Below are positions 12,227 to 27,797 of a stretch of DNA of 64,000 bases, piece by piece (position 1 is the stretch's first letter; each line of letters starts with the position of its first letter). Origin of the DNA: Flavobacterium sp. CBA20B-1 (lineage in GTDB: Bacteria; Bacteroidota; Bacteroidia; Flavobacteriales; Flavobacteriaceae); NCBI RefSeq assembly GCF_028473145.1, contig NZ_CP092370.1, positions 2,418,001 through 2,482,000 of the forward strand, in the 5' to 3' direction. The translations under genes were made by a program, and so were the position numbers. Under the pieces are notes generated by a model. It was not told the origin of the DNA, made no database searches, and saw nothing but the letters and a program-made list of their open reading frames with translations.

Positions 12227-12385
12227 GATGTAGCGAAATCCGCTTACGCTCCTTTCGCTACATCGGGGCGACGCCTGCACCGCACGATGCGCTTGTCGCT
12301 TCGCGAACTTCGCACATCATGCGGTTTTGCTAAATCCTTTCCCCGAGCAAGCTCGGAAAAAGAACTTCGCAAAGCCGCCGCCCCG
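12227..12385 (+). repeat. Gene-less mini-cassette M1 (GC-rich attC-like site)
   Basis: GATGTAGCGAAA (12227-12238) pairs exactly with TTTCGCTACATC (12253-12264) across a 14-nt spacer. A second palindrome follows, with outer arms GGGGCGACGCC and GCCGCCGCCCC and inner CCGCACGATG/CATCATGCGG and CCGAG/CTCGG hairpins, ending at the G of CCCCG|TT. This is a cassette with terminal repeat and recombination-type site but no gene. A near-identical copy is at 15545-15703 and the end of a third is at 26461-26528. It marks the left edge of the array. The 12040-12226 stretch before it shows no gene. Confidence 0.65.
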
Positions 12386-12455
12386 TTGTGCCCAATTAAA
12401 AAATCCGTCACATTACATAATTTTGTTTAAATGATTGTATCTTTGATAGTATCAA

Positions 12456-13424
12456 ATGATAGTATCACAAATGAAACCACCTTACGAAATAACATCTTCT
12501 ATTTTAAAATTAATAACCTCTATCTCTGAGAAAATGGGAGAAGTAAATGCTAATTTATTAAACAGACCTTCACCTAAATTGAGGAAACAGAATAGAATCA
12601 AGACTATTCATTCTTCGTTAAAAATAGAAGGAAACACACTTACAAAAGAACAAATTACAGCGCTTGTAGACAACAAAAGAGTTATTGGCCCAAAAAAAGA
12701 TGTCCTTGAGGTTTTGAATGCTATCAAAATCTATGAAAATTTAGAAAAATATAATCCCTCTAATGAACAGTCATTTTTAAAAGCTCATAAAAACTTAATG
12801 GAAGGTCTTATTGAAAATTCAGGAAAATATAGAAAACAAAGTGTCGGAATCGTAAAAGGTTCAAAAGTTGAACATTTAGCACCTCCATTTGGCAATGTTC
12901 CTTATTTAATGAAGGAACTTTTTGAATACCTGAAAAAGTCAGACGAAATTGAGTTAATTAAAAGTTGTGTTTTTCATTACGAAATGGAATTTATACATCC
13001 GTTTGTAGATGGAAACGGAAGAATGGGGAGGTTATGGCAAACTTTGATTTTAATGGAGAAATATCCGGTATTTGAGTTTTTACCGTTTGAAACTTTAATT
13101 AGTAGTGACCAAGAAAAATATTACAAGGCTCTTGCAGAAAGTGATAAGTCAGGAAATTCAACAAAATTTATTGAGTATATGTTAAAAGTAATTGATAATT
13201 CAATAAGTGAATTATTAGATTTCAATAATCGGACATTAAACGAAAAAGACAGATTAGAATATTATGTTTCATTAAATAAAACCGAATTTACAAGAAAAGA
13301 TTATATGGATGTTTTTAAAGATATTTCTTCTGCAACAGCTAGTAGAGATTTAAAAAAGGGAGCTGAACTAGGCTTTTTTGAAAAAATAGGAGAAAAAAAT
13401 AAGACAATCTATCGTTTAAAATAA
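12456..13424 (+). CDS. Fic/DOC family protein (cassette 1)
   Basis: A 322-residue Fic protein. The catalytic loop is HPFVDGNGRMGRLWQTL (about residue 185), matching HPFx[DE]GNGRxxR of AMP-transferring enzymes. The N-terminal segment SSLKIEGNTLT fits the inhibitory helix motif (S/T)xxxE(G/N), so the protein is a self-inhibited class II Fic. The C-terminal region is a winged-helix-like domain (FTRKDYMDVFKDISSATASR, then DLKKGAELGFFEKIGEKNK). Fic enzymes modify proteins, usually by AMPylation. The gene is alone between repeats GTTGTGCCCA and TGGGCACAAC. A second in-frame ATG is at 12471, and a TATCTTTG -7 box at 12439-12446 lacks a good -33. Confidence 0.92.
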   Translation: MIVSQMKPPYEITSSILKLITSISEKMGEVNANLLNRPSPKLRKQNRIKTIHSSLKIEGNTLTKEQITALVDNKRVIGPKKDVLEVLNAIKIYENLEKYNPSNEQSFLKAHKNLMEGLIENSGKYRKQSVGIVKGSKVEHLAPPFGNVPYLMKELFEYLKKSDEIELIKSCVFHYEMEFIHPFVDGNGRMGRLWQTLILMEKYPVFEFLPFETLISSDQEKYYKALAESDKSGNSTKFIEYMLKVIDNSISELLDFNNRTLNEKDRLEYYVSLNKTEFTRKDYMDVFKDISSATASRDLKKGAELGFFEKIGEKNKTIYRLK

Positions 13425-13425
13425 C

Positions 13426-13622
13426 TGGGCACAACAATGTATAACCGCAATAGCGGGTTAAGTGATAAAGTTATAGTTACTACTTCCATTTTCGCTACTT
13501 GCAATTTAATTTCCTTTTTGTAAATTTAGCAAATAAAATAGCAAGTAGCTTATGTTTGTGCTAAGTTGAAAGTTTCGACTTCCCTACTCCGCTACTGCGT
13601 TTATACGTAACCGTTAGCGGTC
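13426..13622 (+). repeat. attC-like site 1 (family 1, about 197 bp)
   Basis: It runs from R'' TGGGCACAAC of the Fic cassette to R' GTTAGCGGTC of the next. The outer stem pairs TATAACCGCAATAGCGG with CCGCTACTGCGTTTATA. The left arm lacks 3 nt present on the right (ACC before GTT), which leaves a bulge. A further stem near the apex, seen best in the sister copies as GCTACTTGCA/TGCAAGTAGC, closes the centre. Sister copies are at 15358 and 20760. Confidence 0.75.
13499..13529 (+). promoter_or_regulatory. Promoter inside attC-like site 1
   Basis: TTG (13499-13501), 19 nt, then TAAATTTAG (13521-13529), close to the Bacteroidota consensus TTTG-N19-TAnnTTTG. It points to the next cassette gene. The same spacing occurs in the other five family 1 and family 2 sites. 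Confidence 0.55.
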
Positions 13623-13662
13623 AGCTAAAAAAACGAAATCGTAAAAAATAAACGAGAAAGAA

Positions 13663-14073
13663 ATGAAAATACATTCGACAAATTATTTTGACACTTTTAT
13701 CGAAGTTGCGGAAGACACAAAAGCGGAAAGGGGAACAAAACCGCCAACAAAGGACAAAAAAACCGTAGCGGAAATGCAATACGAAATGATTGCAAAAAAT
13801 CCCTACAAATTTACTTCTGATGACGTTTTCTTTCAAGTGTTTTCCGACCGAAAAGACTTGACTAAAGCTGAATATAAACAAGCACGAGAACAATTTTTCT
13901 CAAAAGGGCAGCCTTGCTTTCGAGCTTCACCCTTGACAAAAACATATGGTTTTGGTATTCATAGTGACAGTGATGGGAAAATAGCACTTTTCGGAATGGA
14001 AACGGAAGAGTATCGAAAATTTATAGAGGATTCAAAAATTAAGAAAGTTAAAGCAATGAAATCACGCAGATAA
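13663..14073 (+). CDS. DUF6157 family protein (cassette 2)
   Basis: A 136-residue protein that I recognise as DUF6157: KIHSTNYFDTFIEVAEDTKA, then GTKPPTKDKKTVAEMQYEMI, YKFTSDDVFFQVFSDRKDL and QPCFRASPLTKTYGFGIHSD. It is soluble with no signal peptide. The function of this family is not known; members are common in mobile or accessory contexts of Bacteroidota and Firmicutes. It shares 1 bp with the downstream DUF1761 gene (ATAATGG), so the two are translated together. The pair sits in one cassette. Confidence 0.8.
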   Translation: MKIHSTNYFDTFIEVAEDTKAERGTKPPTKDKKTVAEMQYEMIAKNPYKFTSDDVFFQVFSDRKDLTKAEYKQAREQFFSKGQPCFRASPLTKTYGFGIHSDSDGKIALFGMETEEYRKFIEDSKIKKVKAMKSRR

Positions 14074-14492
14074 TGGAAGTACTTGTAGAAATTAGTTGGT
14101 TGGCTATTGCAATAGGAACAATATTTTATTGTGCATTTTGCGGTATATGGCACAGACAATTTGCTTTTGGTAAAAGTTGGGAAGATGCAATGGGTTTTGA
14201 AAGACCCGAAAATTGGAAAGAGACCAATATTTATTACATCGCACCATTATTCGCTTGCTTCGTTACGACAGTTGTGATTGCCATTTTGCTAAAACTGACA
14301 AATACAAGTTCGTATAATGGAGCATTAAAACTTGGGCTTTTAATTGGATTTGGAATTGCAATGGCTGTCGTTTTTACAACCTCTGTAATTCCGACAATGA
14401 AAAAACCATTGACATTTGGAGCAATAACAGGCACAGCCCAAGCTTTGGGGATAACTTTAACGACCTTGATAATTTACGCAATAACGAATTGA
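14073..14492 (+). CDS. DUF1761 integral membrane protein (cassette 2)
   Basis: A 139-residue protein with four predicted membrane helices (ISWLAIAIGTIFYCAFCGIW, YIAPLFACFVTTVVIAILLK, ALKLGLLIGFGIAMAVVFTT, GTAQALGITLTTLIIYAITN). This is the DUF1761 pattern, including the aromatic-rich HRQFAFGKSWEDAMGF loop. The function is unknown. It overlaps the DUF6157 stop by one base and is followed within 15 bp by the terminal repeat ACCGCTAAC of its cassette. Confidence 0.8.
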   Translation: MEVLVEISWLAIAIGTIFYCAFCGIWHRQFAFGKSWEDAMGFERPENWKETNIYYIAPLFACFVTTVVIAILLKLTNTSSYNGALKLGLLIGFGIAMAVVFTTSVIPTMKKPLTFGAITGTAQALGITLTTLIIYAITN

Positions 14493-14505
14493 AAATAAAA
14501 AGCCG

Positions 14506-14642
14506 AACCGCTAACAATGTATATAAAAAATAGGCGAAACAGTAGAAAAATAAAGGGTTTTGGCTCGTATCAAACTTTGTGCTTAACGGAAAGTTTCGGA
14601 CTTCGAAATCGCCTACTTTTCATATACTAACCGTTGCCCACT
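14506..14642 (+). repeat. attC-like site 2 (short form, about 137 bp)
   Basis: R'' ACCGCTAAC, then TGTATATAAAAAATAGGCGA pairing with TCGCCTACTTTTCATATACT, then ACC and R' GTTGCCCACT. It has the same architecture and the same 3-nt asymmetry as family 1 but a different sequence. No promoter motif is obvious. Confidence 0.7.
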
Positions 14643-14659
14643 ATGCTGGAAAAAACCAA

Positions 14660-15352
14660 ATGAATGAACTAATTGACTTTTTAAAACCTTTCGTCCTTTA
14701 CCTATTCTTTGGGTTCATTGGCTTATTGATATTATACGTTAGGACTTTTATTCAGGAAAGCGCAAAAATTAATGCTCTTAAACGGAAAAACAAAGAACTT
14801 GTTGAAGAAACCGAATCCATTAAAAAAGACCATCAATTAGACATTAGCAAAAGGAGATATCAATACGAGAGTAAAAAAGAACAATATCTTGGATTTTTTA
14901 AGCTTTTAGACAATTTTACAAACGAAGCGACTTTAAAAAATCAATCTGAATTAATGCCAATTTTAGATGAATTCAATAAAAACTATCTAAATGCAGCCAC
15001 TCAAGGAAATAAAAAGAAAGAAAATTTAGCTGTAACAGTAATGTCCAAGAAAATACAAAAAATGACTTTCGATTCCTATGCTGAACTAACAAAATTAAAG
15101 CAAGAAACAAATACAATTCGCCTAATTGCAAGCGATGAAATTTTAGACAAACTCAATCTCTTGGAATTATCATATGACAAATTAATGGAACAGTCTGACA
15201 AAATGATGTCTGACCTACCAAAATTAATGTTGACTGGAAATCAAGTAAGAATTGAATTACAACAAAAGGAACTTGAATTAAAGGGTAAAGTAACTCAAAG
15301 CATTAAAGACGATATTATCAAATTAATGAGAAAAGAACTAAATGAAATATAA
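14660..15352 (+). CDS. Membrane-anchored coiled-coil protein, unknown (cassette 3)
   Basis: A 230-residue protein. An N-terminal membrane helix (FVLYLFFGFIGLLILYVRTF) is followed by long charged helices with heptad character (ALKRKNKELVEETESIKKDH, then LTGNQVRIELQQKELELKGK). I do not recognise the family. The ATG at 14660 is chosen; the longer open frame from 14579 reads through the attC-like site and is not real. It is the only gene between repeats GTTGCCCACT and AGTGGGCAAC. Confidence 0.65.
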   Translation: MNELIDFLKPFVLYLFFGFIGLLILYVRTFIQESAKINALKRKNKELVEETESIKKDHQLDISKRRYQYESKKEQYLGFFKLLDNFTNEATLKNQSELMPILDEFNKNYLNAATQGNKKKENLAVTVMSKKIQKMTFDSYAELTKLKQETNTIRLIASDEILDKLNLLELSYDKLMEQSDKMMSDLPKLMLTGNQVRIELQQKELELKGKVTQSIKDDIIKLMRKELNEI

Positions 15353-15357
15353 AGCAC

Positions 15358-15554
15358 AGTGGGCAACAATGTATAACCGCAATAGCGGGATAAGTGTTAA
15401 AATTATAGTTACTACATCCTTTGTCGCTACTTGCAAATTAATTTCCTTTTTGTAAATTTAGCAAATGAATATGCAAGTAGCTTATGTTTGTGTAAAGTTG
15501 AAAGTTTCGACTTCACTACTCCGCTACTGCGTTTATACGTAACCGATGTAGCGA
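15358..15554 (+). repeat. attC-like site 3 (family 1)
   Basis: A near copy of site 1: R'' AGTGGGCAAC, outer stem TATAACCGCAATAGCGG with CCGCTACTGCGTTTATA, inner stem GCTACTTGCA/TGCAAGTAGC. It ends AACCG and is followed by GATGTAGCGA, the start of the empty mini-cassette M2, rather than GTT. Confidence 0.75.
15431..15461 (+). promoter_or_regulatory. Promoter inside attC-like site 3
   Basis: TTG (15431-15433), N19, TAAATTTAG (15453-15461), same strand as the cassettes. Confidence 0.5.
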
Positions 15555-15703
15555 AATCCGCTTACGCTCCTTTCGCTACATCGGGGCGGCGCCTGCACCG
15601 CACGATGCGCTTGTCGCTTCGCGAACTTCGCACATCATGCGGTTTTGCAAAATCCTTTCCCCGAGCAAGCTCGGAAAAAGAACTTCGCAAAGCCGCCGCC
15701 CCG
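15545..15703 (+). repeat. Gene-less mini-cassette M2
   Basis: Almost identical to M1: 12-bp terminal repeat 15545-15556/15571-15582, then the GC-rich palindromic site ending CCCCG|TT. Differences seen: GGCGGCGCC for GGCGACGCC and TTTGCAAAATCC for TTTGCTAAATCC. Here it lies inside the array, inserted at the ACCG|TT point of site 3, which supports the view that it moves as a cassette. Confidence 0.65.
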
Positions 15704-15722
15704 TTGGTGGCAATTTTACCGA

Positions 15723-15734
15723 ACCGACCGCTAA
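15723..15734 (+). repeat. Orphan cassette-end remnant
   Basis: CGACCGCTAAC ends like the cassette 2 terminus (ACCGCTAAC) but has no attC-like site after it and no partner GTTAGCGGT nearby. It is probably the trace of a deleted cassette. Confidence 0.4.
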
Positions 15735-15764
15735 CAAAAAAAGCATTAAAATTTACTCATTTTA

Positions 15765-15796
15765 TTTTGTAATTGTTCCATTATTCGTTAACTTTG
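15765..15796 (+). promoter_or_regulatory. Dedicated promoter of the toxin-antitoxin cassette
   Basis: TTTTG (15765-15769), exactly 19 nt, TAACTTTG (15789-15796): a full Bacteroidota consensus. The ATG at 15801 is only 4 nt downstream, so the mRNA would be leaderless or nearly so. Confidence 0.75.
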
Positions 15797-15800
15797 TCAA

Positions 15801-16166
15801 ATGGAAATAATTAGAGAAATTGTTTTTTATAAAGACTATTTTGACGACTTTTTTGAACCATTGACCGACAAAGTAAAGGACAAAATTGACGAAGTTCTTT
15901 TTATGATGACAATTATTGAACGTGTTCCAACCAAGTTTTTTAAAAGTATCGAAGGTGTAAAAGGACTTTTTGAAATTCGAGTAGAATATGAAAGTAATAT
16001 TTACAGAATTTTTTGCTGTTTTGACAAAGGAAATTTAGTAGTTCTTTTCAATGGATTTCAAAAGAAAACGCAAAAAACACCGAAGAAAGAGATAATTAGA
16101 GCAGAAAAAATAATGCAGGAATATTTTAATGAACAAAAAGAAAATAAAAATGGAAACAAAAAATAA
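15801..16166 (+). CDS. RelE/ParE-superfamily toxin, Gp49/HigB-like (cassette 5)
   Basis: A 121-residue putative toxin. It reads REIVFYKDYFDDFFEPLTDK, then FFKSIEGVKGLFEIRVEYES, NIYRIFCCFDKGNLVVLFNG and FQKKTQKTPKKEIIRAEKIM. These are the Gp49-like HigB features: GLFEIR, IYRIFC, and LFNGFQKKTQKTP with the basic catalytic tail. Such toxins cleave ribosome-bound mRNA. The gene comes before its antitoxin, as in higBA, and has its own promoter. The 3' end overlaps the downstream gene. Confidence 0.88.
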   Translation: MEIIREIVFYKDYFDDFFEPLTDKVKDKIDEVLFMMTIIERVPTKFFKSIEGVKGLFEIRVEYESNIYRIFCCFDKGNLVVLFNGFQKKTQKTPKKEIIRAEKIMQEYFNEQKENKNGNKK

Positions 16167-16452
16167 AAATATCAAGACTTTTGCTCAACATCTTGACAAA
16201 AGATATGGGTTAACTGGAACTAAAGAAAGAACTGACTTTGAAATTAAAGCCAAATCTTTTGCCATTGGAGAATTAATAAAAGAAGAACGAAAATTGGCTC
16301 AAATGACACAAGAGCAACTTGCTGAGAAAATTGGGGCAAAAAAAAGCTTTATATCGAGAATTGAAAATGGACACAGCGATATTCAACTTTCGACACTTTA
16401 TAAACTTATTGAAATTGGACTTGGACGAAAAATCAACTTTACAATTCAATAA
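16150..16452 (+). CDS. XRE-family antitoxin (HigA-like, cassette 5)
   Basis: About 100 residues, containing an HTH_3 domain: FAIGELIKEERKLAQMTQEQ followed by LAEKIGAKKSFISRIENGHS and TLYKLIEIGLGRKINFTI. It should bind DNA and neutralise the upstream toxin, repressing the shared promoter. ATGs at 16129 and 16150 are possible; both overlap the toxin gene. The stop is followed within 5 bp by the cassette end TGCCACCAA, where an IS91-like element has inserted. Confidence 0.88.
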   Translation: METKNKNIKTFAQHLDKRYGLTGTKERTDFEIKAKSFAIGELIKEERKLAQMTQEQLAEKIGAKKSFISRIENGHSDIQLSTLYKLIEIGLGRKINFTIQ

Positions 16453-16752
16453 AAAACTGCCACCAATAACTAAGCTTTCGTCTTGCCCGGAGGGCATGAG
16501 ATGAATTGAAAATCACTGAACACCAAAACAAATAATAAACAAGTGAAGTAAAGCCCGTTGAACCCTTCGATAAACTCAGGGCAGGCTCACCGGAGTAGCT
16601 TTATGTATTATGGAGTTTTCGAAGTGTAGCTTTAAAATATACCAGCAGTAATTTTGCCATTACTGCTTTTTTTGTGTTTGAACTTGTACTGTTTCAACCT
16701 TTTTCACTTTCTTTTTTTAACGATGAAACACAAGTTCCCTTACCCGTAAAAG

Positions 16753-17850
16753 TTAATTCACAGAAGCAAGTGTATTTTCGATAAGATATACTTTTGGCGG
16801 CCCTCTTTGCCCAAAAACATGCAACGTAACCAGATTTCCAATTTTACAACAAAAACATTTTCTATGTTGTGTTTTGATTTCGATTTCGGGTCTTACAACA
16901 TTTAAATGCTCTTGTAATTGTTGGAGTTTTCCGCGTTTCCAACTACTACTTAAAATGCCATAATGCCTAATCCGAACAAAGCGTTTGGGTAAAATATGCA
17001 AACTAAATCTGCGAACAAACTCTTCATTTTTTAAGGTGAGTTGCTTGGTTTTACTACCGTCTTTATAATCTTTGTATGCAATGGTAACTTCGTGATTGGT
17101 TACGTTTTTAATCCGATGATTGCTAATAGCTACTTTGTGTGTGTATCTACCTAAATATTCAATCACTTGTTTTGGTCCACCAAAAGGACGTTTGGCATAA
17201 ACCACCCAATTCTTTTCGAATAATTGATTGTACAACGCTTGATTTCCTAAACTTTCTTTACGCATGGAGGCCACAAATTTTGCTCGAAAAACCTTACTCA
17301 ATGCTTTTACACAAAACAAGTATTTATCGGTTTTTATCTTGCGTTTCCATTTACCGTTTGCATCAATTCCACCTCCAGGAATAATGCAATGAATATGCGG
17401 ATGCAAACTCAGATTTTGTCCCCAAGTATGCAAAATTCCAATCATTCCTAAATGCATATTTTCAGTTTTTCCGAACTGAGAAAGCGTTGCCCAAACCGAA
17501 TCAAACAAGATTTTATACATCAATTGTGGCTGATGAATCGTTAATCCATTAAGCGAATCTGGAAGGGTAAAAACCACATGATAATACGAACAAGGCAATA
17601 AATCTTGTTCGCGCGCCTGAATCCATTCTTCACGTTTATGACCTTGACATTTCGGACAATGTCTGTTTCGGCAACTGTTGTAGCTAATGCTGATGTTTCC
17701 GCAAGTATCACAAGCATCTACATGTCCGCCCAAAGCAGCAGTTCTGCATAAAGTCAATGCTCGAAGTGTTTTTTCTTGATGAACCGTAAAGTTTTGGTTA
17801 GACAAATCGACTTTTTTGAGCACATCGGCTACTTCCCATTGCGGCTGCAT
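16753..17850 (-). CDS. IS91 family transposase (Y2/HUH type)
   Basis: A 365-residue rolling-circle transposase. An N-terminal zinc-binding domain (CDTCGNISISYNSCRNRHCP, KCQGHKREEW) precedes the HUH motif HPHIHCIIPGGG. The Y2 catalytic motif lies in IEYLGRYTHKVAIS (YxxxY), and the C-terminus has RIRHYGILSSSWKRG and CFCCKIGN. It should nick ssDNA at the element ends and transpose without making target duplications. It overlaps the upstream recombinase by 22 bp. The gene looks intact. Confidence 0.93.
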   Translation of the reverse strand: MQPQWEVADVLKKVDLSNQNFTVHQEKTLRALTLCRTAALGGHVDACDTCGNISISYNSCRNRHCPKCQGHKREEWIQAREQDLLPCSYYHVVFTLPDSLNGLTIHQPQLMYKILFDSVWATLSQFGKTENMHLGMIGILHTWGQNLSLHPHIHCIIPGGGIDANGKWKRKIKTDKYLFCVKALSKVFRAKFVASMRKESLGNQALYNQLFEKNWVVYAKRPFGGPKQVIEYLGRYTHKVAISNHRIKNVTNHEVTIAYKDYKDGSKTKQLTLKNEEFVRRFSLHILPKRFVRIRHYGILSSSWKRGKLQQLQEHLNVVRPEIEIKTQHRKCFCCKIGNLVTLHVFGQRGPPKVYLIENTLASVN

Positions 17851-18731
17851 AGCGCAAAAACGGTATCAATTGGACTGTGTACTTTTTGGTTTTCGAGCTG
17901 ACAAACATGTAAGTATTCCATCGTAGTTTCAATACGTTCATGTCCCATCAATTTCTGAACTTGCAGAATATTTACACCATCTTCGAGCAAATGCGTAGCG
18001 TAGCTGTGACGCAATGTATGGGTGTGCACATCTTTTAAAATTCCGGCCTTTTTACAAACCGATTTTATGACCCATTGAACCCCACGCTGACTATAACGCG
18101 AATCAAAACCTTTGGCATCTTTGGTGTTTCCGGTAAATAAAAAGGTGGTAGGATGTTCGACCGAAATATACTTTTTAATCCCTCGAATAATATGATCAGA
18201 AAGTGGAACATAACGATCTTTCTTCCCTTTACTTTGAACAATATGTAGTAATTTTCTATCGAAATCGAGATGTTTGAGTTCGATGTTTCTCACTTCCATA
18301 CAGCGCAATCCACAGCTATAAATCAAACCAATTAAAATGCGATGTTTGAGCAAATCGGCATGTTGAAGCAGTTTCCAAATCTCATGACGACTTAAAATAA
18401 CAGGAAGTTTTTTTTCTTTAGGAATTGCCGGTAAATGAAGATAATCATACGGAAGATTTTCGGTCTTTAGTAGAAATCGAAGTCCGTAAACAGTGTGTTT
18501 AAAATACGATTGTGAAGGAGATTTAGAGCGTTGTTGGAGTTCAAAGAGGTAATCTTTAACCTGTTCAGGATCTAATTCGGTTGGTAAACAGCCAAAATGT
18601 AAGGCCATTGCAGCAACATGGCGAGAATAATTTTCGAAAGTGCGTTTACTTCGTCCTAAAATAGAAATATTACGCTCAAAACGTTGCAGAAGTTCAGAAA
18701 AACCATTAATTTCACTACAAGCGCGATTCAA
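17829..18731 (-). CDS. Tyrosine recombinase of the IS91-like element
   Basis: A 300-residue phage-integrase-family protein. The N-terminal SAM-like domain reads GRSKRTFENYSRHVAAMALH. Catalytic residues are complete: CGLRCMEVRNI (Arg), HTLRHSYATHLLEDG (HxxR), LMGHERIETTMEYLHV (His and nucleophile Tyr). It lacks the extra helix insert typical of integron IntI as far as I can see. The open frame starts at TTG 18731; an ATG at 18778 joins only if an eight-A tract (18762-18769) slips. Both element copies have the eight-base tract. A role on the cassettes is unproven. Confidence 0.9.
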   Translation of the reverse strand: MNRACSEINGFSELLQRFERNISILGRSKRTFENYSRHVAAMALHFGCLPTELDPEQVKDYLFELQQRSKSPSQSYFKHTVYGLRFLLKTENLPYDYLHLPAIPKEKKLPVILSRHEIWKLLQHADLLKHRILIGLIYSCGLRCMEVRNIELKHLDFDRKLLHIVQSKGKKDRYVPLSDHIIRGIKKYISVEHPTTFLFTGNTKDAKGFDSRYSQRGVQWVIKSVCKKAGILKDVHTHTLRHSYATHLLEDGVNILQVQKLMGHERIETTMEYLHVCQLENQKVHSPIDTVFALCSRNGK

Positions 18732-18779
18732 ATATTTGTTCGCTCTTAATTCCTCCGGAGATTTTTTTTAGTTACCATA

Positions 18780-19755: not shown

Positions 19756-19840
19756 TTACCATAGTATCAATTATTTAATCGTTAATAAATACTAAGATAC
19801 GAATATCATCGCAACGAAAGCTACCGGAGGTTTAGTTCAA

Positions 19841-20022
19841 CAAAGGCTATACATAATGCGGGGTTAAGTGCGAAATTTAGAGTTTTAGTCTTGTCTTTCG
19901 CTTCGCCTTTTGTATATTTAGTGAAAATTTAAAATATTCAACGGCTACGCTCTACTCCGTGCCGATTTGAAACTTTCAGTCTTCAAATCCCGCACTACGT
20001 ATAGCCCAAACCGTTGTAGCCA
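19841..20022 (+). repeat. attC-like site 5 (family 2), left box split off by IS91
   Basis: GGCTATACATAATGCGGGG pairs with TCCCGCACTACGTATAGCCC. It ends AAACCG|TT with R' GTTGTAGCCA. Its R'' (TGCCACCAA) lies 3.4 kb upstream at 16458-16466 because of the IS91-like insertion. Sister sites are at 22274 and 23049. Confidence 0.75.
19891..19921 (+). promoter_or_regulatory. Promoter inside attC-like site 5
   Basis: TTG (19891-19893), N19, TATATTTAG (19913-19921), facing the 20052 gene. Confidence 0.5.
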
Positions 20023-20051
20023 ATTTAAAAAAAACATCGTCCTAAATTAAA

Positions 20052-20753: not shown

Positions 20754-20759
20754 AAAAAC

Positions 20760-20956
20760 TGGCTACAACATCGTATAACCGCAATAGCGGGATAAGTACC
20801 AAAATCAAAGTTTCTACATCCTTTGTCGCTACTTGCAAATTAATTTCCTTTTTGTAAATTTAGCAAATAAATATGCAAGTAGCTTATGTTTGTGTAAAGT
20901 TGAAAGTTTCCACTTCCCTACTCCGCTACTGCGTTTATACGTAACCGTTGTAAAAC
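20760..20956 (+). repeat. attC-like site 6 (family 1)
   Basis: R'' TGGCTACAAC; outer stem TATAACCGCAATAGCGG with CCGCTACTGCGTTTATA; inner stem GCTACTTGCA/TGCAAGTAGC; ACCG|TT; R' GTTGTAAAAC. Close in sequence to sites 1 and 3. Confidence 0.75.
20833..20863 (+). promoter_or_regulatory. Promoter inside attC-like site 6
   Basis: TTG (20833-20835), N19, TAAATTTAG (20855-20863), facing the 20972 gene. Confidence 0.5.
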
Positions 20957-20971
20957 ATTTTGACAAACCGA

Positions 20972-21388
20972 ATGAGTTGTGTTTTAAGAATAGATGGAAA
21001 GAATTTTAAAGTCGATGATTTTTTAAAATCAACCGATTTGAAACCCTATAAAACGTATCGGATAGGCGAAAAAACAAAAATCGGAAAGAAAAAAATTGAG
21101 AACTCAAACGGTTGCTCTTTTGAATTGAGTAATGCCGATTACAATTACTTTGAACAGCAAAGAAAAGATGCGACTGAATTTTTAAAAGCCAACTTTGATA
21201 AACTTGAAACTGTATTTTCATTTGGACTTTCAGATAACGAAAACCCAATAATTGATTTCGGAATTGCAACGAGAATGCACGAAGTTGAAGCTCAATTTGA
21301 CTATTTGGAACCTGAATTGCTAAAACTAGCTGGAAACCTGAATTTTGGAATTGAAATTAGCCAATATCATCCAGCGGCTGAGGAATAG
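20972..21388 (+). CDS. Small protein, possibly DUF4279 family (cassette 7)
   Basis: A 138-residue soluble protein: SCVLRIDGKNFKVDDFLKST, then YKTYRIGEKTKIGKKKIENS and NPIIDFGIATRMHEVEAQFD. The alternation of short strands and helices and the opening LRIDG...FL resemble DUF4279 proteins, whose function is unknown; this match is tentative. The ATG at 20972 is preferred over a TTG 12 nt upstream. It is alone in its cassette, between GTTGTAAAAC and GTTTTACAAC. Confidence 0.6.
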   Translation: MSCVLRIDGKNFKVDDFLKSTDLKPYKTYRIGEKTKIGKKKIENSNGCSFELSNADYNYFEQQRKDATEFLKANFDKLETVFSFGLSDNENPIIDFGIATRMHEVEAQFDYLEPELLKLAGNLNFGIEISQYHPAAEE

Positions 21389-21404
21389 AAATTGGATAAA
21401 AAAC

Positions 21405-21544
21405 GTTTTACAACAACGTGTATAGCTCATTGCGGCTGAATTTCCCTGGCGGAAAATTCGCTGCAATTCACAAATGTTTGTGATTATTTGAAAGTTTTTC
21501 CATAACTTTCCGCAACGAAGCCATACACAAAACCGTTGCCAATA
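21405..21544 (+). repeat. attC-like site 7 (short form, about 140 bp)
   Basis: R'' GTTTTACAAC; GTGTATAGCTCATTGCGG pairs with CCGCAACGAAGCCATACAC; ACCG|TT; R' GTTGCCAATA. A smaller hairpin (GAATTTCCC/GGAAAATTC) sits in the left half. The sequence is unrelated to families 1 and 2 but has the same plan. Confidence 0.7.
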
Positions 21545-21563
21545 ATTATTATTAACAACACGA

Positions 21564-22298
21564 ATGAAAGAAATATACGAACCAAAATTTGTTGAAAAGC
21601 TATTTGACAAAATGAGTAGTTCGTATTCTAAAATGAATTACATAACTTCTTTTGGATTCAGCGAAAGATGGAGAAAACAATGTGTTGAGGAAATTGAAAT
21701 CGAGAGCGGTAAAACTATTGTCGATTTAATGACCGGAATGGGAGAATGTTGGAAGTATATTCTTAAAAATTCAGATAAAAACTCAACTTTAATCGGACTT
21801 TACTTTTCAACCGAAATGATAAATCGAGCTGAGAAAAACAAAAGTAAGTTCAAAAGAACTAAAATTGAAATTCTAAAAGAAAACGTGTTTGAAAATTCAA
21901 TCGAGAACGAAACTGCGGATTTTATTATTTCGGGTTTTGGTTTAAAGACATTTAATGATGAACAACTTGAAAAATTAGCATTTGAAATTGATCGAATTTT
22001 AAAACCAGGTGGAAAGTTTTCCTTGATTGATGTTTCTGTTCCAGATAATAAACTTCTAAAAACATTTTATATGTTTTATTTGAAAAAAATTATTCCTGTT
22101 TTAGGAAAATTATTTCTTGGAAATCCTGAAACTTATAGAATGTTAGGTGTTTATACAGAAGAATATAGAAATTCAAAAAATGTACATCGAATTTTTAGCC
22201 AAATGGAACTTGAAGTTGAATATATAGAATATTTCTACGGCTGTGCAAGCGGAATTAAAGGGCAAAAAATAACTATTGGCAACAAGGGCTATACATAA
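21564..22298 (+). CDS. Class I SAM methyltransferase, UbiE-like (cassette 8)
   Basis: A 244-residue methyltransferase: FDKMSSSYSKMNYITSFGFS as in UbiE/MenG proteins, motif I TIVDLMTGMGECWKYILKN, ADFIISGFGLKTFNDEQLEK (motif II) and RILKPGGKFSLIDVSVPDN (motif III). The substrate is unknown; a quinone role is unlikely for a cassette gene. The last codons (TIGNKGYT and stop) lie inside the R'' box and left arm of the next attC-like site, which therefore supplies the C-terminus and stop codon. Confidence 0.85.
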   Translation: MKEIYEPKFVEKLFDKMSSSYSKMNYITSFGFSERWRKQCVEEIEIESGKTIVDLMTGMGECWKYILKNSDKNSTLIGLYFSTEMINRAEKNKSKFKRTKIEILKENVFENSIENETADFIISGFGLKTFNDEQLEKLAFEIDRILKPGGKFSLIDVSVPDNKLLKTFYMFYLKKIIPVLGKLFLGNPETYRMLGVYTEEYRNSKNVHRIFSQMELEVEYIEYFYGCASGIKGQKITIGNKGYT

Positions 22299-22464
22299 TG
22301 CGGGGTTAAGTGCAAAATTTGAAATTTTCGTCTTGTATTTCGCTTCGCCTTTTGTATATTTAGTGAAAATTTAAAATATTCAACGGCTACGCTCTACTTC
22401 GTGCCGATTTGAAACTTTCAGTCTTCAAATCCCGCACTACGTATAGCCCAGACCGTTGTGCAAC
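22274..22464 (+). repeat. attC-like site 8 (family 2)
   Basis: R'' TATTGGCAAC; GGCTATACATAATGCGGGG pairs with TCCCGCACTACGTATAGCCC; ACCG|TT; R' GTTGTGCAAC. It overlaps the 3' end of the methyltransferase gene by 25 bp. Confidence 0.75.
22333..22363 (+). promoter_or_regulatory. Promoter inside attC-like site 8
   Basis: TTG (22333-22335), N19, TATATTTAG (22355-22363). Confidence 0.5.
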
Positions 22465-22489
22465 AGTTAAAAAAAAAATAACGCAAAAA

Positions 22490-22519
22490 TTGAATGATAG
22501 AATTAAATTTGTAACTTTG
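22490..22519 (+). promoter_or_regulatory. Dedicated promoter of the second toxin-antitoxin cassette
   Basis: TTG (22490-22492), exactly 19 nt, TAACTTTG (22512-22519), a consensus match. The ATG is at 22525, 5 nt after the box, so the transcript is probably leaderless, as in cassette 5. Confidence 0.75.
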
Positions 22520-22524
22520 ATATT

Positions 22525-22758
22525 ATGGATTTAAGTTTAGAAAAGAAAAAAATCGAATTAATTCAATGGTTATCAACATTAAACGACAAGTCTTTGATTG
22601 ACAAACTAATGAAATTAAGAGATGAAGAAAAAACCGATTGGTGGAATGAAATTTCTGCTTCCGAAAAAGAATCTATTGAAAAAGGAATTCAAGATGCTGA
22701 CAACGGAAAATTAACTTCTCACTCTAACGTGAAAGGAATTTATGAAAAGTGGTTATAA
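22525..22758 (+). CDS. RelB-like antitoxin / addiction module component (cassette 9)
   Basis: A 77-residue, largely helical protein: DLSLEKKKIELIQWLSTLND, then LIDKLMKLRDEEKTDWWNEI and SEKESIEKGIQDADNGKLTS, then HSNVKGIYEKWL. The layout (helical N-terminal dimerisation half, SExxSIExGxxD region, short C-terminal toxin-binding tail) is that of small antitoxins paired with RelE/ParE toxins. It overlaps the next gene by 17 bp. Confidence 0.8.
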   Translation: MDLSLEKKKIELIQWLSTLNDKSLIDKLMKLRDEEKTDWWNEISASEKESIEKGIQDADNGKLTSHSNVKGIYEKWL

Positions 22759-23044
22759 AATACTGTGGACTGACCACGCAATCTCTGAACTTAAAGAAAC
22801 TATTGAATATCTTGAAAATAATTGGACTGAAAGAGAATTAAGAAAATTTGCTGCTAAATTAGATCACACAATCGAACTGATTTCAAAAATGCCTGCAATT
22901 TTCCCCGAATCAATTGAAAAAAAGAAAATCCGAAAAGCTGTAGTTGAAAAGCATAACAATTTATACTACAGAATCAATAAAAATTCAATTGAGATTGTTT
23001 CTTTATTTTCAAACAGAAAGAATCCAAATAAGAAAAAAATATAA
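22742..23044 (+). CDS. RelE/ParE family toxin (cassette 9)
   Basis: A 100-residue toxin-fold protein: GYKILWTDHAISELKETIEY, then ENNWTERELRKFAAKLDHTI, KMPAIFPESIEKKKIRKAVV and NLYYRINKNSIEIVSLFSNR. The pattern W(T/S)xxAxxxLxxIxxY...LYYRI...I.L.R matches ParE/RelE. Targets differ in this superfamily (gyrase or mRNA) and cannot be assigned here. Together with the antitoxin it fills one cassette, GTTGTGCAAC to GTTGCACAAC. Confidence 0.85.
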   Translation: MKSGYKILWTDHAISELKETIEYLENNWTERELRKFAAKLDHTIELISKMPAIFPESIEKKKIRKAVVEKHNNLYYRINKNSIEIVSLFSNRKNPNKKKI

Positions 23045-23048
23045 AACC

Positions 23049-23239
23049 GTTGCACAACAAAGGCTATACATAATGCGGGGTTAAGTGTGAAATTTGAAAT
23101 TTTCGTCTTGTATTTCGCTTCGCCTTTTGTATATTTATTGAAAATTTAAAATATTCAACGGCTACGCTCTACTTCGTGCCGATTTGAAACTTTCAGCTTT
23201 CAAATCCCGCACTACGTATAGCCCAGACAGTTGTAGCCA
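23049..23239 (+). repeat. attC-like site 9 (family 2)
   Basis: R'' GTTGCACAAC; GGCTATACATAATGCGGGG pairs with TCCCGCACTACGTATAGCCC; ends ACAG|TT (C to A compared with the other sites); R' GTTGTAGCCA. Confidence 0.75.
23108..23138 (+). promoter_or_regulatory. Promoter inside attC-like site 9
   Basis: TTG (23108-23110), N19, TATATTTAT (23130-23138), facing the M23 peptidase gene. Confidence 0.45.
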
Positions 23240-23253
23240 ATTAAATCAGACAA

Positions 23254-24090
23254 ATGAAATTTAGGGTATTTTATGTAATAATTATACTTTTAGTTGTTGG
23301 TTGCTCAACAACTAAACTTCCTGCAAAGAAAATATCTCAAGCTGAAATTCCCACACCAAAATTTATTTTGAAAAACAAGAGTTTGGAAATACAACTCATA
23401 AATCCCGCTAGTTGTCCAATTAGATTTGAAATTGAAACTAATAACTCAAATTTAAATAATAGACTTAAAGAACTTGGTATCATCGAATTGAAAGCAAAGT
23501 CAGATACATTAGTTAGAATAAGAAATGTATCCCAGTTTGACCAGAATGCATCATTTGGTTACAACTGGAGATTTGGTAGTTTATCAAAAAAGATTACACC
23601 TATCAAAATGGAATTACCTTTTCCAAAAGGCAAAAAATATAAAGTCATTCAAGGAAATAATACAAATCATACTCATAATACAGAATGGTCAAAATTTGCT
23701 GTTGATTTTGACCTGAAAATAAATGATACTATTTGTTCATCAACCGATGGTTTTGTAGTTGGGGTTGTTGACCAATATAAATATGGAGGCAAAGGAGATG
23801 AATGGAAATCTTATGGAAATTTTGTAACTATATATGAACCAAATTCAGGCATTTTTACCCAATATGTACATTTAACTGAAAATGGAAGTTTGGTTAAAGT
23901 AGGTGATAAAATCAAGAAAGGTCAACCTATTGGGATGTCAGGTATGACAGGCCAAACAGATATTGAACATCTGCATTTTAATTGTTTAGTTCCAACAAAC
24001 AGCGAAGATGGATTAAAGTCAATCGAATTTGATTTTGTTGGTGGTTATAAAAGTATTGAACTAAAGAAAGGCGATATACTTGAAAAATAA
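23254..24090 (+). CDS. M23 family metallopeptidase lipoprotein (cassette 10)
   Basis: A 278-residue envelope protein. The lipoprotein signal is VIIILLVVGCSTTK. The C-terminal half is a LytM/M23 peptidase domain: HNTEWSKFAVDFDL (metal Asp), TDGFVVGVVDQYKYGGKG, TQYVHLTENGSLVKVGDKIK and IEHLHFNCLVP (HxH). M23 enzymes cut peptidoglycan cross-links. The N-terminal part is an unassigned beta domain. It sits alone between GTTGTAGCCA and TGGCTACAAC. As cassette cargo it may act in envelope remodelling or competition (inference). Confidence 0.88.
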   Translation: MKFRVFYVIIILLVVGCSTTKLPAKKISQAEIPTPKFILKNKSLEIQLINPASCPIRFEIETNNSNLNNRLKELGIIELKAKSDTLVRIRNVSQFDQNASFGYNWRFGSLSKKITPIKMELPFPKGKKYKVIQGNNTNHTHNTEWSKFAVDFDLKINDTICSSTDGFVVGVVDQYKYGGKGDEWKSYGNFVTIYEPNSGIFTQYVHLTENGSLVKVGDKIKKGQPIGMSGMTGQTDIEHLHFNCLVPTNSEDGLKSIEFDFVGGYKSIELKKGDILEK

Positions 24091-24091
24091 C

Positions 24092-24228
24092 TGGCTACAA
24101 CAATGGCTATAAACAATTGGGGCGAAAGTGATAAAACGGAAGTATAAACATAAAACAAAGGTCGGTGCTAAACTGAAAAGTTAAGGCGTAAAATCCCCAA
24201 CTGTTTATAACCGAGACCGTTGTGCGTA
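24092..24228 (+). repeat. attC-like site 10 (short form, about 137 bp)
   Basis: R'' TGGCTACAAC; GGCTATAAACAATTGGGG pairs with CCCCAACTGTTTATAACC; ACCG|TT; R' GTTGTGCGTA. It shows the same CAAT/CAGT mismatch in the stem as the other sites. Confidence 0.72.
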
Positions 24229-25694: not shown

Positions 25695-25704
25695 CTACGC
25701 ACAA

Positions 25705-26460
25705 TAACTAAGCTTTCGTCTTGCCCGGAGGGCATGAGATGAATTGAAAATCACTGAACACCAAAACAAATAATAAACAAGTGAAGTAAAGCCCGTTGAA
25801 CCCTTCGATAAACTCAGGGCAGGCTCACCGGAGTAGCTTTATGTATTATGGAGTTTTCGAAGTGTAGCTTTAAAATATACCAGCAGTAATTTTGCCATTA
25901 CTGCTTTTTTTTATGGTTGAACTTGTACTGTTTCAACCTTTTTCACTTTCTTTTCTTTACGATGAAACACAAGTTCCCTTACCCGTAAAAGTTAATTCAC
26001 AGAAGCAAGTGTATTTTCGATAAGATATACTTTTGGCGGACCTCTTTGCCCAAAAACATGCAACGTAACCAGATTTCCAACCTTAGTCCGTAAACGGTGT
26101 GTTTAAAATACGATTGTGAAAGAGATTTAGAGCGTTGTTGGAGTACAAAGAGGTAATCTTTAACCTGTTCAGGATCTAATTGGGTTGGTAAAGATCCAAA
26201 ATGAAGCGCCATTGCAGCTATATGACGTGAATAATTTTCGAAAGTCCGTTTACTTCGTCCTAAAATAGAAATATTACGCTCAAAACGTTGTAGAAGTTCT
26301 GAAAAACCATTAATTTCGTTACAAGCGCGATTCAGGTATTTGTTCGCTCTTAATTCCTCCGGAGATTTTTTTTAGTTACCATAGTATCAATTATTTAATC
26401 GTTAATAAATACTAAGGTACGAATATCATCGCAACGAAAGCTACCGGAGGTTTAGTTCAA
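25705..26460 (-). mobile_element. Internally deleted IS91-like element, copy 2
   Basis: Both ends match copy 1. The left part (25705-26080) equals 16467-16841. It then jumps to the equivalent of about 18480 and runs to ...GGTTTAGTTCAA. About 1.6 kb is lost, taking nearly all of the transposase and the recombinase catalytic domain. The right part differs from copy 1 at several bases, so this is an older or different copy. Within it, 25997-26212 still encodes a recombinase fragment. It may still be mobilised in trans. Confidence 0.85.
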
Positions 26461-26528
26461 AATGCGGTTTTGCTAAATCCTTTCCCCGAGCAAGCTCGGA
26501 AAAAGAACTTCGCAAAGCCGCCGCCCCG
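26461..26528 (+). repeat. Right end of a third GC-rich mini-cassette site (M3)
   Basis: ATGCGGTTTTGCTAAATCC onward matches the last 68 bp of M1, including CCGAG/CTCGG and GCCGCCGCCCCG|TT. The left part was lost at the IS91-like insertion. R' GTTAGGCAGC follows. Confidence 0.75.
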
Positions 26529-26581
26529 TTAGGCAGCAAGGCTAACACGACACATAAACCTAATAATAACAACATTAAACA

Positions 26582-27676
26582 ATGGGAATTTTTGACAAAA
26601 TATTTGGAAAGAAAGAAGATAAAATTCAGACGTATGCAGACTTTTGGAATTGGTTTTCTGCAAACGAACAGACATTCTATAATGTAGTAAGGACAGGTAA
26701 AAATATAGAAGCGGGCTTTTTCAACAAACTTTCACCAAAACTTGAAGAATTAAAAGACGGTTTCTTTTATCTGACAGGTATGTATGACGACAATACAGCA
26801 GAATTGGTATTTACACCTGATGGAGTATTAAAGAACATTGTTTTTGTTGAAGAACTTGTGAGTTCAGCACCCAAAATACCTAATTGGAAATTTACTGCAT
26901 TAAAACCCGAACTTGACATAGAGAACGTTGGGATTAAAATGGCAGACTATACTTTTGACAGAGATAATCTATCGTTTTACGCTATTGAGCATAAAAATTT
27001 TCCTGATGAAGTTGACATAGTTGTAGCCCACAACGACTATAAAGAAGACGAGAAATCAACAATTATAAATGGGACATACATTTTCCTTGACAATTATCTC
27101 GGTGAACTTAACTCTGTTACAACCATCGACAACTTAACAGTAATTTCAAAAGACCATGCAGAAAAAGAATTGATACCAATTGAAAAACTAAAAGATTATC
27201 TAATTTGGAGAGAGAAAGAGTTTTTGGAAAGATATGAAGGCATTCGTTACAACACAGAAAATGATAGTTTTTCAAGTTTAGAAGCGACACTTAATATCGG
27301 ACTTCCATTAGTTGCAATTATCAATACAACTTTACTTGATTGGGACAGTAAAGCATCACATCCTTGGATATTGAAAGTTGAAATAAAATTTGACGGCAGT
27401 AAAAACAATGGAATGCCTGACAATAATACTTATGAGCAACTAAATAGCTTTGAAGATGAAATAATGGCTGAACTTAAAGACTTTGAAGGATATTTAAACA
27501 TAGGTAGACAAACAGCAGACAGTGAAAGAATTATTTATTTCGCTTGTAAAGATTTCAGAAAGCCATCAAAGCTTCTTTACAATTTGACAAAGAAATATTC
27601 AGACAAATTAGATTTAAGCTATGACCTTTATAAAGACAAATATTGGCAATCATTTGAAAGGTTCAGGCCCAACTAA
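26582..27676 (+). CDS. DUF695 domain protein (cassette 12)
   Basis: A 364-residue soluble protein. The C-terminal third shows the DUF695 pattern (LLDWDSKASHPWILKVEIKF, then NTYEQLNSFEDEIMAELKDF and ADSERIIYFACKDFRKPSKL). The N-terminal two thirds (TYADFWNWFSANEQTFYNVV, then FNKLSPKLEELKDGFFYLTG) is the partner domain often seen in Bacteroidota immunity-like or regulatory proteins. The function is unknown. It starts 54 bp after the CCCCG|TT of M3 and is the last gene of the array. Confidence 0.8.
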   Translation: MGIFDKIFGKKEDKIQTYADFWNWFSANEQTFYNVVRTGKNIEAGFFNKLSPKLEELKDGFFYLTGMYDDNTAELVFTPDGVLKNIVFVEELVSSAPKIPNWKFTALKPELDIENVGIKMADYTFDRDNLSFYAIEHKNFPDEVDIVVAHNDYKEDEKSTIINGTYIFLDNYLGELNSVTTIDNLTVISKDHAEKELIPIEKLKDYLIWREKEFLERYEGIRYNTENDSFSSLEATLNIGLPLVAIINTTLLDWDSKASHPWILKVEIKFDGSKNNGMPDNNTYEQLNSFEDEIMAELKDFEGYLNIGRQTADSERIIYFACKDFRKPSKLLYNLTKKYSDKLDLSYDLYKDKYWQSFERFRPN

Positions 27677-27689
27677 CAAAAGAAGTTCA

Positions 27690-27797
27690 GCTGCCAACAC
27701 GGGTTTTGCGTCAGGCGGGTTGACGTGTAAACTTGGAGCTCCTATGTTTGCAAATTTATTACTTTGCAAACATAGGAGCCCTAGAACGTTATCGGCA
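27690..27797 (+). repeat. Last, hybrid attC-like site with a perfect 17-bp hairpin
   Basis: It begins GCTGCCAAC, partly complementary to the cassette start GTTAGGCAGC. The left arm (ACACGGGTTTTGCGTCAGGC) has no matching right arm. Instead GCTCCTATGTTTGCAAA (27738-27754) pairs perfectly with 27763-27779 over an 8-nt loop, and the site ends GAACGTTATCGG. It may be a recombined or decayed end of the array. Confidence 0.5.

What the first reader, a model, noticed from the sequence alone, without database searches (positions are those of the whole stretch)
12227..27797. Integron-like cassette array without a visible integron integrase, in a flavobacterium
Seen: 14 same-strand genes grouped in 11 units, each bounded by its own inverted terminal repeat and separated by structured sites of about 130-200 bp. 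The break point is constant (ACCG|TT or CCCCG|TT). Known: integron cassettes have this logic (one or few genes, attC at the end, ends pairing in the circular form, frequent toxin-antitoxin cargo). Different here: boxes match only GTT/AAC of GTTRRRY/RYYYAAC, sites are long, several unrelated families coexist, and no IntI lies nearby. Inference: a cassette-mobilising system distinct from, or strongly diverged from, classical integrons.
Basis: partly seen in the sequence, partly recalled or inferred. Interest (0 to 1): 0.95.

Follow-up and report, generated by a model that had tools for sequence, protein, structure and literature searches.

The report
Integron-like gene arrays, unusual integrase
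This stretch of a flavobacterial genome is a chain of apparently exchangeable gene cassettes like those of integrons, with hairpin sites of a kind present in most of the related genomes examined, and its likely enzyme lacks the part thought essential for integrons, so gene capture of this type may exist in a second, overlooked form.

Summary
In detail: 14 same-strand genes in 11 cassettes plus two geneless ones, each intact cassette's first ~10 bases matching the reverse complement of its own last ~10, separated by hairpin sites. It is one of three arrays in this genome, all starting at the same attI-like core. One array sits beside the likely recombinase: a XerA-like tyrosine recombinase (355 aa) without the IntI-specific insert, outside the IntI clade. 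Relatives (52-69% identity) at 80 named loci carry the same sites upstream on the opposite strand (113, against 2 on the other strand and 11 downstream in twice the DNA). Related recombinases in other genomes precede arrays on the same strand. A covariance model finds the sites in 79 of 90 genomes of the family. Homology between relatives stops at G|TT (15 of 15 Arenibacter pairs), and one 1586-base cassette is 97% identical end to end in two genera. Stem mismatches are A.C on the top strand (258 against 22 G.T), so the bottom strand folds better in 127 of 131 stems. Unexpectedly, gene bodies up to 92% identical carry different hairpins. It works like an integron but fails the IntI test: a new variant. 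Recombination itself is inferred, not shown.

The parts
12211..12227 (+). attI-like core TTTCGTATATATTTGTG|, crossover after 12227
   Evidence: Same core begins all three arrays of the genome; in close relative G650 homology stops here
12228..12385 (+). geneless cassette C (first copy)
   Evidence: 9 copies of its first 23 bases in the three arrays: window 2, array 1 4, array 2 3
12386..13613 (+). cassette c1: Fic-family gene plus A-type hairpin site (hairpin 13436-13613)
   Evidence: ends 10/10 complementary; PF02661; body homologs in other genera
13614..14633 (+). cassette c2: DUF6157 and DUF1761 genes plus B-type site
   Evidence: ends 9/10 complementary
14634..15545 (+). cassette c3: one gene without a Pfam match plus A-type site
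15546..15703 (+). geneless cassette C (second copy)
15704..16466 (+). cassette c5 body: RelE/Gp49-type toxin gene and HTH antitoxin gene
   Evidence: PF05973, PF01381; right end interrupted at R'' by IS91-like element
16467..19840 (.). IS91-like element (transposase 16753-17850 -, tyrosine recombinase 17829-18731 -) with nested IS982 transposase gene (18859-19740 +), inserted at R'' AA|C
   Evidence: NF033538, NF033520; junctions
19841..20013 (+). D-type hairpin site of interrupted cassette c5
20014..20947 (+). cassette c6 plus A-type site
   Evidence: body homologs in L236 and L242, whose own cassette ends were not recognised
20948..21535 (+). cassette c7 plus E-type site
21536..22455 (+). 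cassette c8: UbiE-like methyltransferase gene plus D-type site
   Evidence: PF01209; body homologs
22456..23230 (+). cassette c9: small gene and ParE-type toxin gene plus D-type site
   Evidence: PF05016; body homologs
23231..24219 (+). cassette c10: M23 peptidase gene plus F-type site
   Evidence: PF01551
24220..25704 (+). cassette c11 body: serine hydrolase of the beta-lactamase superfamily (no named family over its cut-off among the 25 of 47 shown)
   Evidence: PF00144; interrupted at R''
25705..26460 (.). remnant of a second IS91-like insertion
26461..26528 (+). 3' remnant of geneless cassette C
26529..27788 (+). cassette c12: DUF695 gene plus G-type site, last unit; imperfect end complementarity
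   Evidence: PF05117
11716..12039 (-). single-strand-binding-protein-like gene next to the attI core (platform shared with array 2; named from its sequence, no family search run)
   Evidence: window 11669-12226 matches G000:C1:1772360-1772916 at 89%

Best explanation
The region is an integron-like cassette array whose cassettes are likely captured at an attI site, as folded bottom-strand hairpins, by a XerA-like tyrosine recombinase that lacks the IntI-specific insert and is encoded 1.27 Mb away in the same genome. Shown by sequence: three arrays starting at one attI-like core; cassette ends that match each other far better than the two boxes of one integrated site do; a conserved hairpin with strand-specific mismatches; an association and orientation of such sites with this recombinase in many genera; homology that stops at G|TT between relatives; a whole cassette shared between genera. 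Inferred: the recombinase does the work, in trans on the window array; the excised cassette is a circle in which R'' and R' of the same cassette pair; the bottom strand is the substrate; integrated sites, whose R boxes pair little beyond three bases, excise poorly.
For: Three arrays with the same core. Recombinase divergent from array 1, start codon 170 bases from its attI. In 80 named loci: 113 sites upstream on the opposite strand in 355 kb, 2 upstream on the same strand, 11 downstream in 736 kb; 41 of 55 loci with at least 1.5 kb upstream carry a site. attI core 105-194 bases from the recombinase start in about 60 of 80. Cassette start against own end: 87 of 141 consecutive pairs match at 5 or more of 7 positions (shuffled 9.4%), R' against R'' of the same integrated site in 33 of 206. 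Compensatory end changes in homologous cassettes, e.g. GTTGTGC/GCACAAC to GTTATGC/GCATAAC. Mismatches 258 A.C against 22 G.T; bottom strand more stable in 127 of 131 stems. Homology stops at G|: 15 of 15 Arenibacter pairs 82-100% before, 43-56% after; G000/G650 81-85% before, 43-46% after; random 100-base stretches give 49% (sd 3). 1586-base cassette 97.2% identical in Kriegella and Algibacter. IntI clade 100/99 excludes these recombinases; 42-column insert missing.
Against: No recombination, circle or excision was observed. 14 of 55 recombinase loci with at least 1.5 kb upstream show no site by the scan, and 54 of 141 consecutive pairs do not match end to end, which I put down to missed sites without checking each. 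R' against R'' of one integrated site is slightly above the shuffled level (16% against 9.4%). The scan was tuned on the window's own sites, fixes AAC and G(T/A)T by construction and accepts only ungapped stems. In G253 an IntI with the insert lies 4-6 kb from two sites of this kind, so the hairpin class is not proven exclusive to the insert-less enzymes. Action in trans is inferred. Sites occur in more family genomes (79 of 90) than genomes with a close recombinase relative (75 of 249 at E 1e-60).
Confidence: 0.85

Rival explanations
1. A classical integron (IntI type) with a degenerate array: the cassettes were placed by an ordinary IntI that has since been lost.
For: IntI over the curated cut-off exists in the phylum (105 of 395 genomes), and in G253 an insert-bearing IntI lies 4-6 kb from two sites of this kind.
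Against: No IntI over the cut-off in this genome, nor in the 19 other same-genus genomes listed without a match at E 1e-45 (further no-match rows were not printed). The insert-less recombinase lies beside such arrays in dozens of genomes with fixed orientation and attI spacing, and relatives of the array still turn over.
Confidence: 0.06
2. The IS91-like element's own tyrosine recombinase, or its transposase, moves the cassettes; the array is a by-product of that element.
For: Three of four IS91-like left junctions fall inside an R'' box confirmed by its cassette start, at the AA|C step; the fourth also follows ..AA but fits no cassette start I found. Its recombinase ends in HSPID like IntI and also lacks the insert.
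Against: Its ends were found in arrays 2 and 3 only, not at attI; none in array 1. It is a long branch outside the array-recombinase group. The 80-locus association was found with the other recombinase; those loci were not searched for IS91-like elements.
Confidence: 0.05
3. Gene bodies bounded by ~10-bp inverted ends are small transposon-like units of their own, and the hairpins are resident terminators or targets.
For: Bodies of 70-92% identity keep paired ends but not the hairpin.
Against: The Kriegella/Algibacter pair shares body and hairpin end to end; array units run in one strand orientation between G|TT points; attI homology stops at G|.
Confidence: 0.1
4. Ordinary repeated transcription terminators between unrelated genes, without mobility.
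For: Sites lie 3' of genes and fold into hairpins.
Against: Ends of one unit pair with each other across hundreds to thousands of bases, with compensatory changes; exact-boundary turnover; orientation relative to a recombinase.
Confidence: 0.01

Closest known systems
Chromosomal integrons (IntI, attI, attC)
   Same: Recombinase, adjacent attI, array of one- or two-gene same-strand cassettes, hairpin site at each gene's 3' end, crossover G|TT, better-folding bottom strand, toxin-antitoxin cargo, geneless cassettes. (That integrons show both recombinase orientations is stated in PMC8352920 passages as inverted IntIs.)
   Different: Recombinase lacks the IntI-specific insert and lies outside the IntI clade. 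R boxes are cassette-specific over about 10 bases and match GTTRRRY only as GTTR. Ungapped 18-bp stem with A.C at positions 7 and 12. Type II attI is an inverted repeat in 9 of 17 loci. Gene bodies and hairpins separate in evolution; whether classical cassettes do so was not tested.
CALIN (clusters of attC sites lacking an integrase; IntegronFinder term, PMC9024848)
   Same: The window array has sites but no adjacent recombinase of the array type.
   Different: It keeps its own attI core, and the genome encodes the likely recombinase elsewhere.
XerA / NF040815 tyrosine recombinases
   Same: The recombinase scores 223.4 against the cut-off 220; best solved relative 4a8e.
   Different: Carries an N-terminal region of about 85 residues before the match and is tied to cassette arrays.
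Integron-like subgroup of tyrosine recombinases (PMC8138268)
   Different: It calls the insertion essential for integron function and describes no arrays for members without it in the passages I read.
Gene conversion among Vibrio 59-base elements (PMC1382264)
   Same: That paper suggests gene conversion could keep attC sites of one species alike (passages read), a known idea for site replacement.
   Different: Here similarity of the body ends at the R'' box and the site that follows belongs to another family.

Membership tests
Integron (IntI type) | Integrase with the IntI-specific additional domain (I2 region) | tested here: not met
   43 columns (42 of them in one block) filled in at least 80% of 15 IntI and at most 20% of 27 relatives of the array recombinase; about 41 residues of 2A3V unaligned; TIGR02249 202 bits against cut-off 265
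Integron (IntI type) | Integrase falls in the IntI clade | tested here: not met
   IntI 15 rows one clade, support 100/99, without the 27 recombinases; the tool warned of long branches
Integron (IntI type) | attI next to the integrase | tested here: met
   Type I core upstream, type II inverted repeat downstream in 9 of 17 loci; position inferred from cassette starts, not from cleavage
Integron (IntI type) | Array of mobile cassettes, each with a 3' hairpin site, crossover G|TT | tested here: met
   mobility inferred by comparison
Integron (IntI type) | R boxes RYYYAAC / GTTRRRY | tested here: not met
   205 sites: AAC and G(T/A)T fixed by the scan; 4th base R in 201; 5th and later bases not R/Y restricted
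Integron (IntI type) | Extrahelical bases for strand choice | tested here: inconclusive
   All 205 sites have ungapped 18-bp stems, but the scan accepts only such stems
Integron (IntI type) | Recombination of the folded bottom strand | not testable with these tools
   Only predicted: bottom strand folds better in 127 of 131 stems and 106 of 131 whole sites
NF040815 recomb_XerA_Arch | Score over the curated cut-off | tested here: met
   223.4 against 220

The most novel reading that the evidence does not exclude
These recombinases, lacking the device that lets IntI stop after one strand, exchange both strands between two folded sites and thereby swap the hairpin caps while leaving the gene bodies in place. 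Gene body (TT...AA) and hairpin (C...G) are then two separately shuffled modules, an incoming gene can acquire a resident hairpin, and Bacteroidota integrons are a second origin, or the surviving pre-I2 state, of single-strand cassette recombination.
Probability: 0.3. Interest if true: 0.97.

Novelty: new variant of a known kind. Interest (0 to 1): 0.92.

Why it matters
Published work ties recombination of folded single-stranded sites to the I2 helix of IntI and calls both exclusive to integron integrases (PMC7790495, passages read), and the IntegronFinder 2.0 survey reports one complete integron in Bacteroidetes, in Salinibacter, besides those of Chlorobi and Ignavibacteriae (PMC9024848, passages read). 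A covariance model built here finds attC-like sites in 79 of 90 genomes, one per genus, of one family. If the system works as inferred, a large pool of exchangeable genes has been missed by tools that require the IntI insert; how IntI arose becomes testable with a natural enzyme that lacks it; and the origin of cassettes gains a concrete mechanism to test: exchange of hairpins between gene bodies.

Tried and rejected
The IntI family in the own genome rang only below cut-off, as it does in all 14 control genomes, so that hit alone was not evidence; the link came from its position beside an array. AlphaFold on the recombinase was weak (pLDDT 72, pTM 0.38, residues 299-345 and 347-355 under 50), and the Foldseek matches (XerA, IntI4) are not used as evidence. 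Rfam gave nothing for the sites (only Flavo-1 elsewhere in the window).

I considered that hairpins simply diverge fast. Rejected: own array-1 cassette c5 and L302 are 92.4% identical in body, both with a recognised hairpin, and the first 115 bases after AAC are 59.4% identical with no blastn match; the baseline of site against shuffled site is 49% (sd 2.7, highest of 400: 57.3), so this pair lies just above it, as the shared consensus arms would give. Three Fic bodies 93-95% identical (L272, L273, L275) are followed by sequence 47-53% identical, but only L275 has a recognised hairpin. Against the reading: L241/L248 (bodies 79.9%) do share a hairpin type (70.8%), own/L241 and own/L292 have short blastn matches (33 and 16 bases), and Kriegella/Algibacter share body and hairpin. 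Of 22 bodies with ends paired at 8 or 9 of 9 positions, 12 are followed by a recognisable hairpin (shuffle p up to 0.06) and 10 are not (five at p 0.77 or more, four at 0.14-0.45, one at a contig end); the swap is read from the 12. Loci whose ends were not recognised (26 of 58) or paired at 7 of 9 only (10) were left out of that count.

I considered that insert-less enzymes and the hairpin class always go together; G253 speaks against a strict rule, while G299 has an insert-less recombinase divergent from two sites in a genome that also has an IntI. The attI pattern found 69 of 80 but made false picks (seven at 18-45 bases, and L144 and L209), which I discount. Type II attI: no inverted repeat in 8 of 17 loci, and no first cassette in 2 of 19. 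In the tree, 15 of 30 fetched IntI loci were used: 18 chosen, L129 not extracted, L117 and L126 dropped; the 27 relatives were not each checked for an array. Covariance model R1 was trained on 33 sites, some from genomes that were then searched, and no genome outside the phylum was searched with it.
Full report
OBSERVATION. The window array was rebuilt from the sequence. After an attI-like core at 12211-12227 follow 14 genes in 11 gene-bearing cassettes and two complete geneless cassettes (C), all on the + strand. For the 8 cassettes with both ends intact, the first 10 bases from G|TT match the reverse complement of the last 10 ending in AAC, exactly in 7 and at 9 of 10 in one. Nine of the separating sites share an 18-bp stem whose bases change on both sides together (33 sites). 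The C and G sites have other stems.

WHERE THE RECOMBINASE IS. A pattern drawn from the sites finds three arrays in the genome: C1 1.16 Mb (+), 1.75-1.77 Mb (-) and the window at 2.43 Mb (+). All three begin after the same core, TTTCGTATATATTTGTG|. Array 1 lies divergent from a 355-residue tyrosine recombinase whose start codon is 170 bases from its attI. The recombinase passes the XerA model (223.4 bits, cut-off 220) and fails the integron-integrase model (202, cut-off 265). The window array has no recombinase of its own beyond the one inside an IS91-like element, so the array-1 enzyme likely acts on it in trans.

ASSOCIATION IN OTHER GENOMES. Among 249 genomes of the family, 12 besides the own carry a full-length ortholog at 57-63% identity (one with two stop codons inside), then identities drop to 48% or less. 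A scan of 80 named loci (Flavobacteriaceae, Weeksellaceae and a few other Bacteroidota, names as in the record titles) finds 113 sites upstream on the opposite strand in 355 kb, 2 upstream on the same strand, and 11 downstream in 736 kb. 41 of 55 loci with at least 1.5 kb upstream carry a site; 14 do not. An attI core such as ACACATATATATGTG|TT or GCGTATATTTGTGTG|TT lies 105-194 bases from the recombinase start in about 60 of 80. More distant recombinases (about 34-48% identity) precede sites on their own strand: of 20 loci fetched downstream of them, 18 hold at least one site, one of these with an additional site on the other strand. Of 17 such loci with a recognisable first cassette, 9 have just before it an inverted repeat with arms of 9-14 bases that no shuffle of 200 reached, for example ATAACCGTATGTATACGGTTATCCTTACG|TT; 8 have none. 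A covariance model of 33 sites finds sites in 79 of 90 family genomes, one per genus, and in 56 of 90 genomes drawn from the phylum. Some training sites come from searched genomes, and no genomes outside the phylum were searched with it.

THE UNIT. For 141 pairs of consecutive sites, a cassette's start matches its own end at 5 or more of 7 positions beyond GTT/AAC in 87 (9.4% in shuffles); the two R boxes of one integrated site do so in 33 of 206. Homologous cassettes in other genera keep their ends complementary while both change. The ends of one cassette thus match each other, as they would pair in a circle, although they lie hundreds to thousands of bases apart in the chromosome.

STRAND. 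In 131 distinct stems, non-Watson-Crick positions are A.C on the top strand 258 times, G.T 22 times, other 112 times, with peaks at stem positions 7 and 12. A.C above means G.T below, so the bottom strand forms the better hairpin in 127 of 131 stems and in 106 of 131 whole sites. Classical attC sites are recombined as the bottom strand, with strand choice set mainly by the first extrahelical base (PMC2727003, passages read).

TURNOVER AT THE EXACT POINT. In six Arenibacter loci the 100 bases before the attI G| are 82-100% identical in all 15 pairs and the 100 bases after it 43-56%; random stretches give 49% (sd 3). L194 and L200 are 100% and 52%. The close relative G650 keeps the gene-plus-attI platforms of arrays 2 and 3 and differs from G| onward (81-85% before, 43-46% after). 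A 1586-base cassette is 97.2% identical from first to last base in Kriegella sp. EG-1 and an Algibacter sp. with different attI flanks and different next cassettes.

BODY AND HAIRPIN ARE SEPARABLE. Window and array-1 cassettes have 67-92% identical bodies in many other genera. Where the cassette ends are recognisable, similarity runs from G|TT to about the R'' box and stops. Of 58 matched loci, 32 have paired ends, 22 of these at 8 or 9 of 9 positions. In 12 of the 22 a recognisable hairpin follows, and it differs from the one in this genome (48-59% identity over 115 bases; baseline 49%, highest 57). The clearest pair is own array-1 cassette c5 and L302: body 92.4%, identical ends, hairpin 59%. 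The IS91-like element also enters at this step: three of four left junctions lie in a confirmed R'' box at AA|C. I read this as hairpin exchange at the R'' and R' steps. Complete two-strand exchange between two folded sites would do exactly that; IntI is held back from the second exchange by its I2 helix (PMC7790495, passages read), which these enzymes lack. Gene conversion, proposed for Vibrio sites (PMC1382264, passages read), is the older alternative. This step is a proposal.

THE RECOMBINASE FAMILY. In a 45-row tree (301 columns), 15 IntI form one clade (100/99); 27 relatives of the array recombinase form another group (82/88); two own-genome Xer-like rows were the outgroup, and the tool warned of long branches. 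The IntI insert is missing from the five relatives printed, the IS91-associated recombinase and the own Xer rows, and its columns are filled in at most 20% of the 27. Across the phylum, 105 of 395 genomes have an IntI over the cut-off; of the rows listed, one is in the own class and none in the own family or genus.

KNOWN AND NEW. Nine paper searches were made; no title or abstract start listed describes these arrays. The library holds open-licence PMC papers only, and no preprints. IntegronFinder 2.0 reports one complete integron in Bacteroidetes, Salinibacter ruber M1, besides Chlorobi and Ignavibacteriae (PMC9024848, passages read). Reviews list Bacteroidota among phyla with integrons (PMC8618304, passage read). 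I therefore file this as working like an integron but not a member of the IntI type.

LIMITS. Everything is comparative. The site scan was tuned on the window, fixes part of the R boxes, accepts only ungapped stems and misses sites. One IntI with the insert lies 4-6 kb from two sites of this kind in G253.

Noticed in passing
window 12228-12385, 15546-15703; L039 6739, 7825, 8736, 11740: A 158-base geneless cassette starting G|ATGTAGCG occurs 9 times in the three arrays, each time directly after an attI or a hairpin site and first in every array; other genera have other G|ATG.. sequences at attI (L153, L183, L207).
   Followed up: partly
window 16467, 25705; array 2: IS91-like elements carrying a tyrosine recombinase: three of four left junctions lie at the AA|C step of a confirmed R'' box, the fourth follows CTTCTAA without a matching cassette start. 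Insertion sequences that target attC are known to me from recall.
   Followed up: partly
window 11716-12039 and G000:C1:1772360-1772916: A single-strand-binding-protein-like gene sits beside the attI of both arrays without a recombinase, also in relative G650.
   Followed up: partly
L239 and L273: Two different cassette bodies in genome G153 are followed by the same sequence AAAGTACTGTGGTAAAAAACAAGT right after R'', possibly another element that targets this step.
   Followed up: no
L039 6310-6568 and L266: The recombinase of close relative G650 is only 66% identical; blastn homology of the locus stops before the N-terminal ~86 codons, as if that part were exchanged or evolved fast.
   Followed up: no
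upstream of type I recombinases, e.g. L197, L205: An inverted repeat like TTTTGTATATCA..TGATATACAAAA lies just upstream of several type I recombinase genes, a possible operator.
   Followed up: no
window 5418-5506: Flavo-1 RNA (RF01705), 73.5 bits.
   Followed up: no
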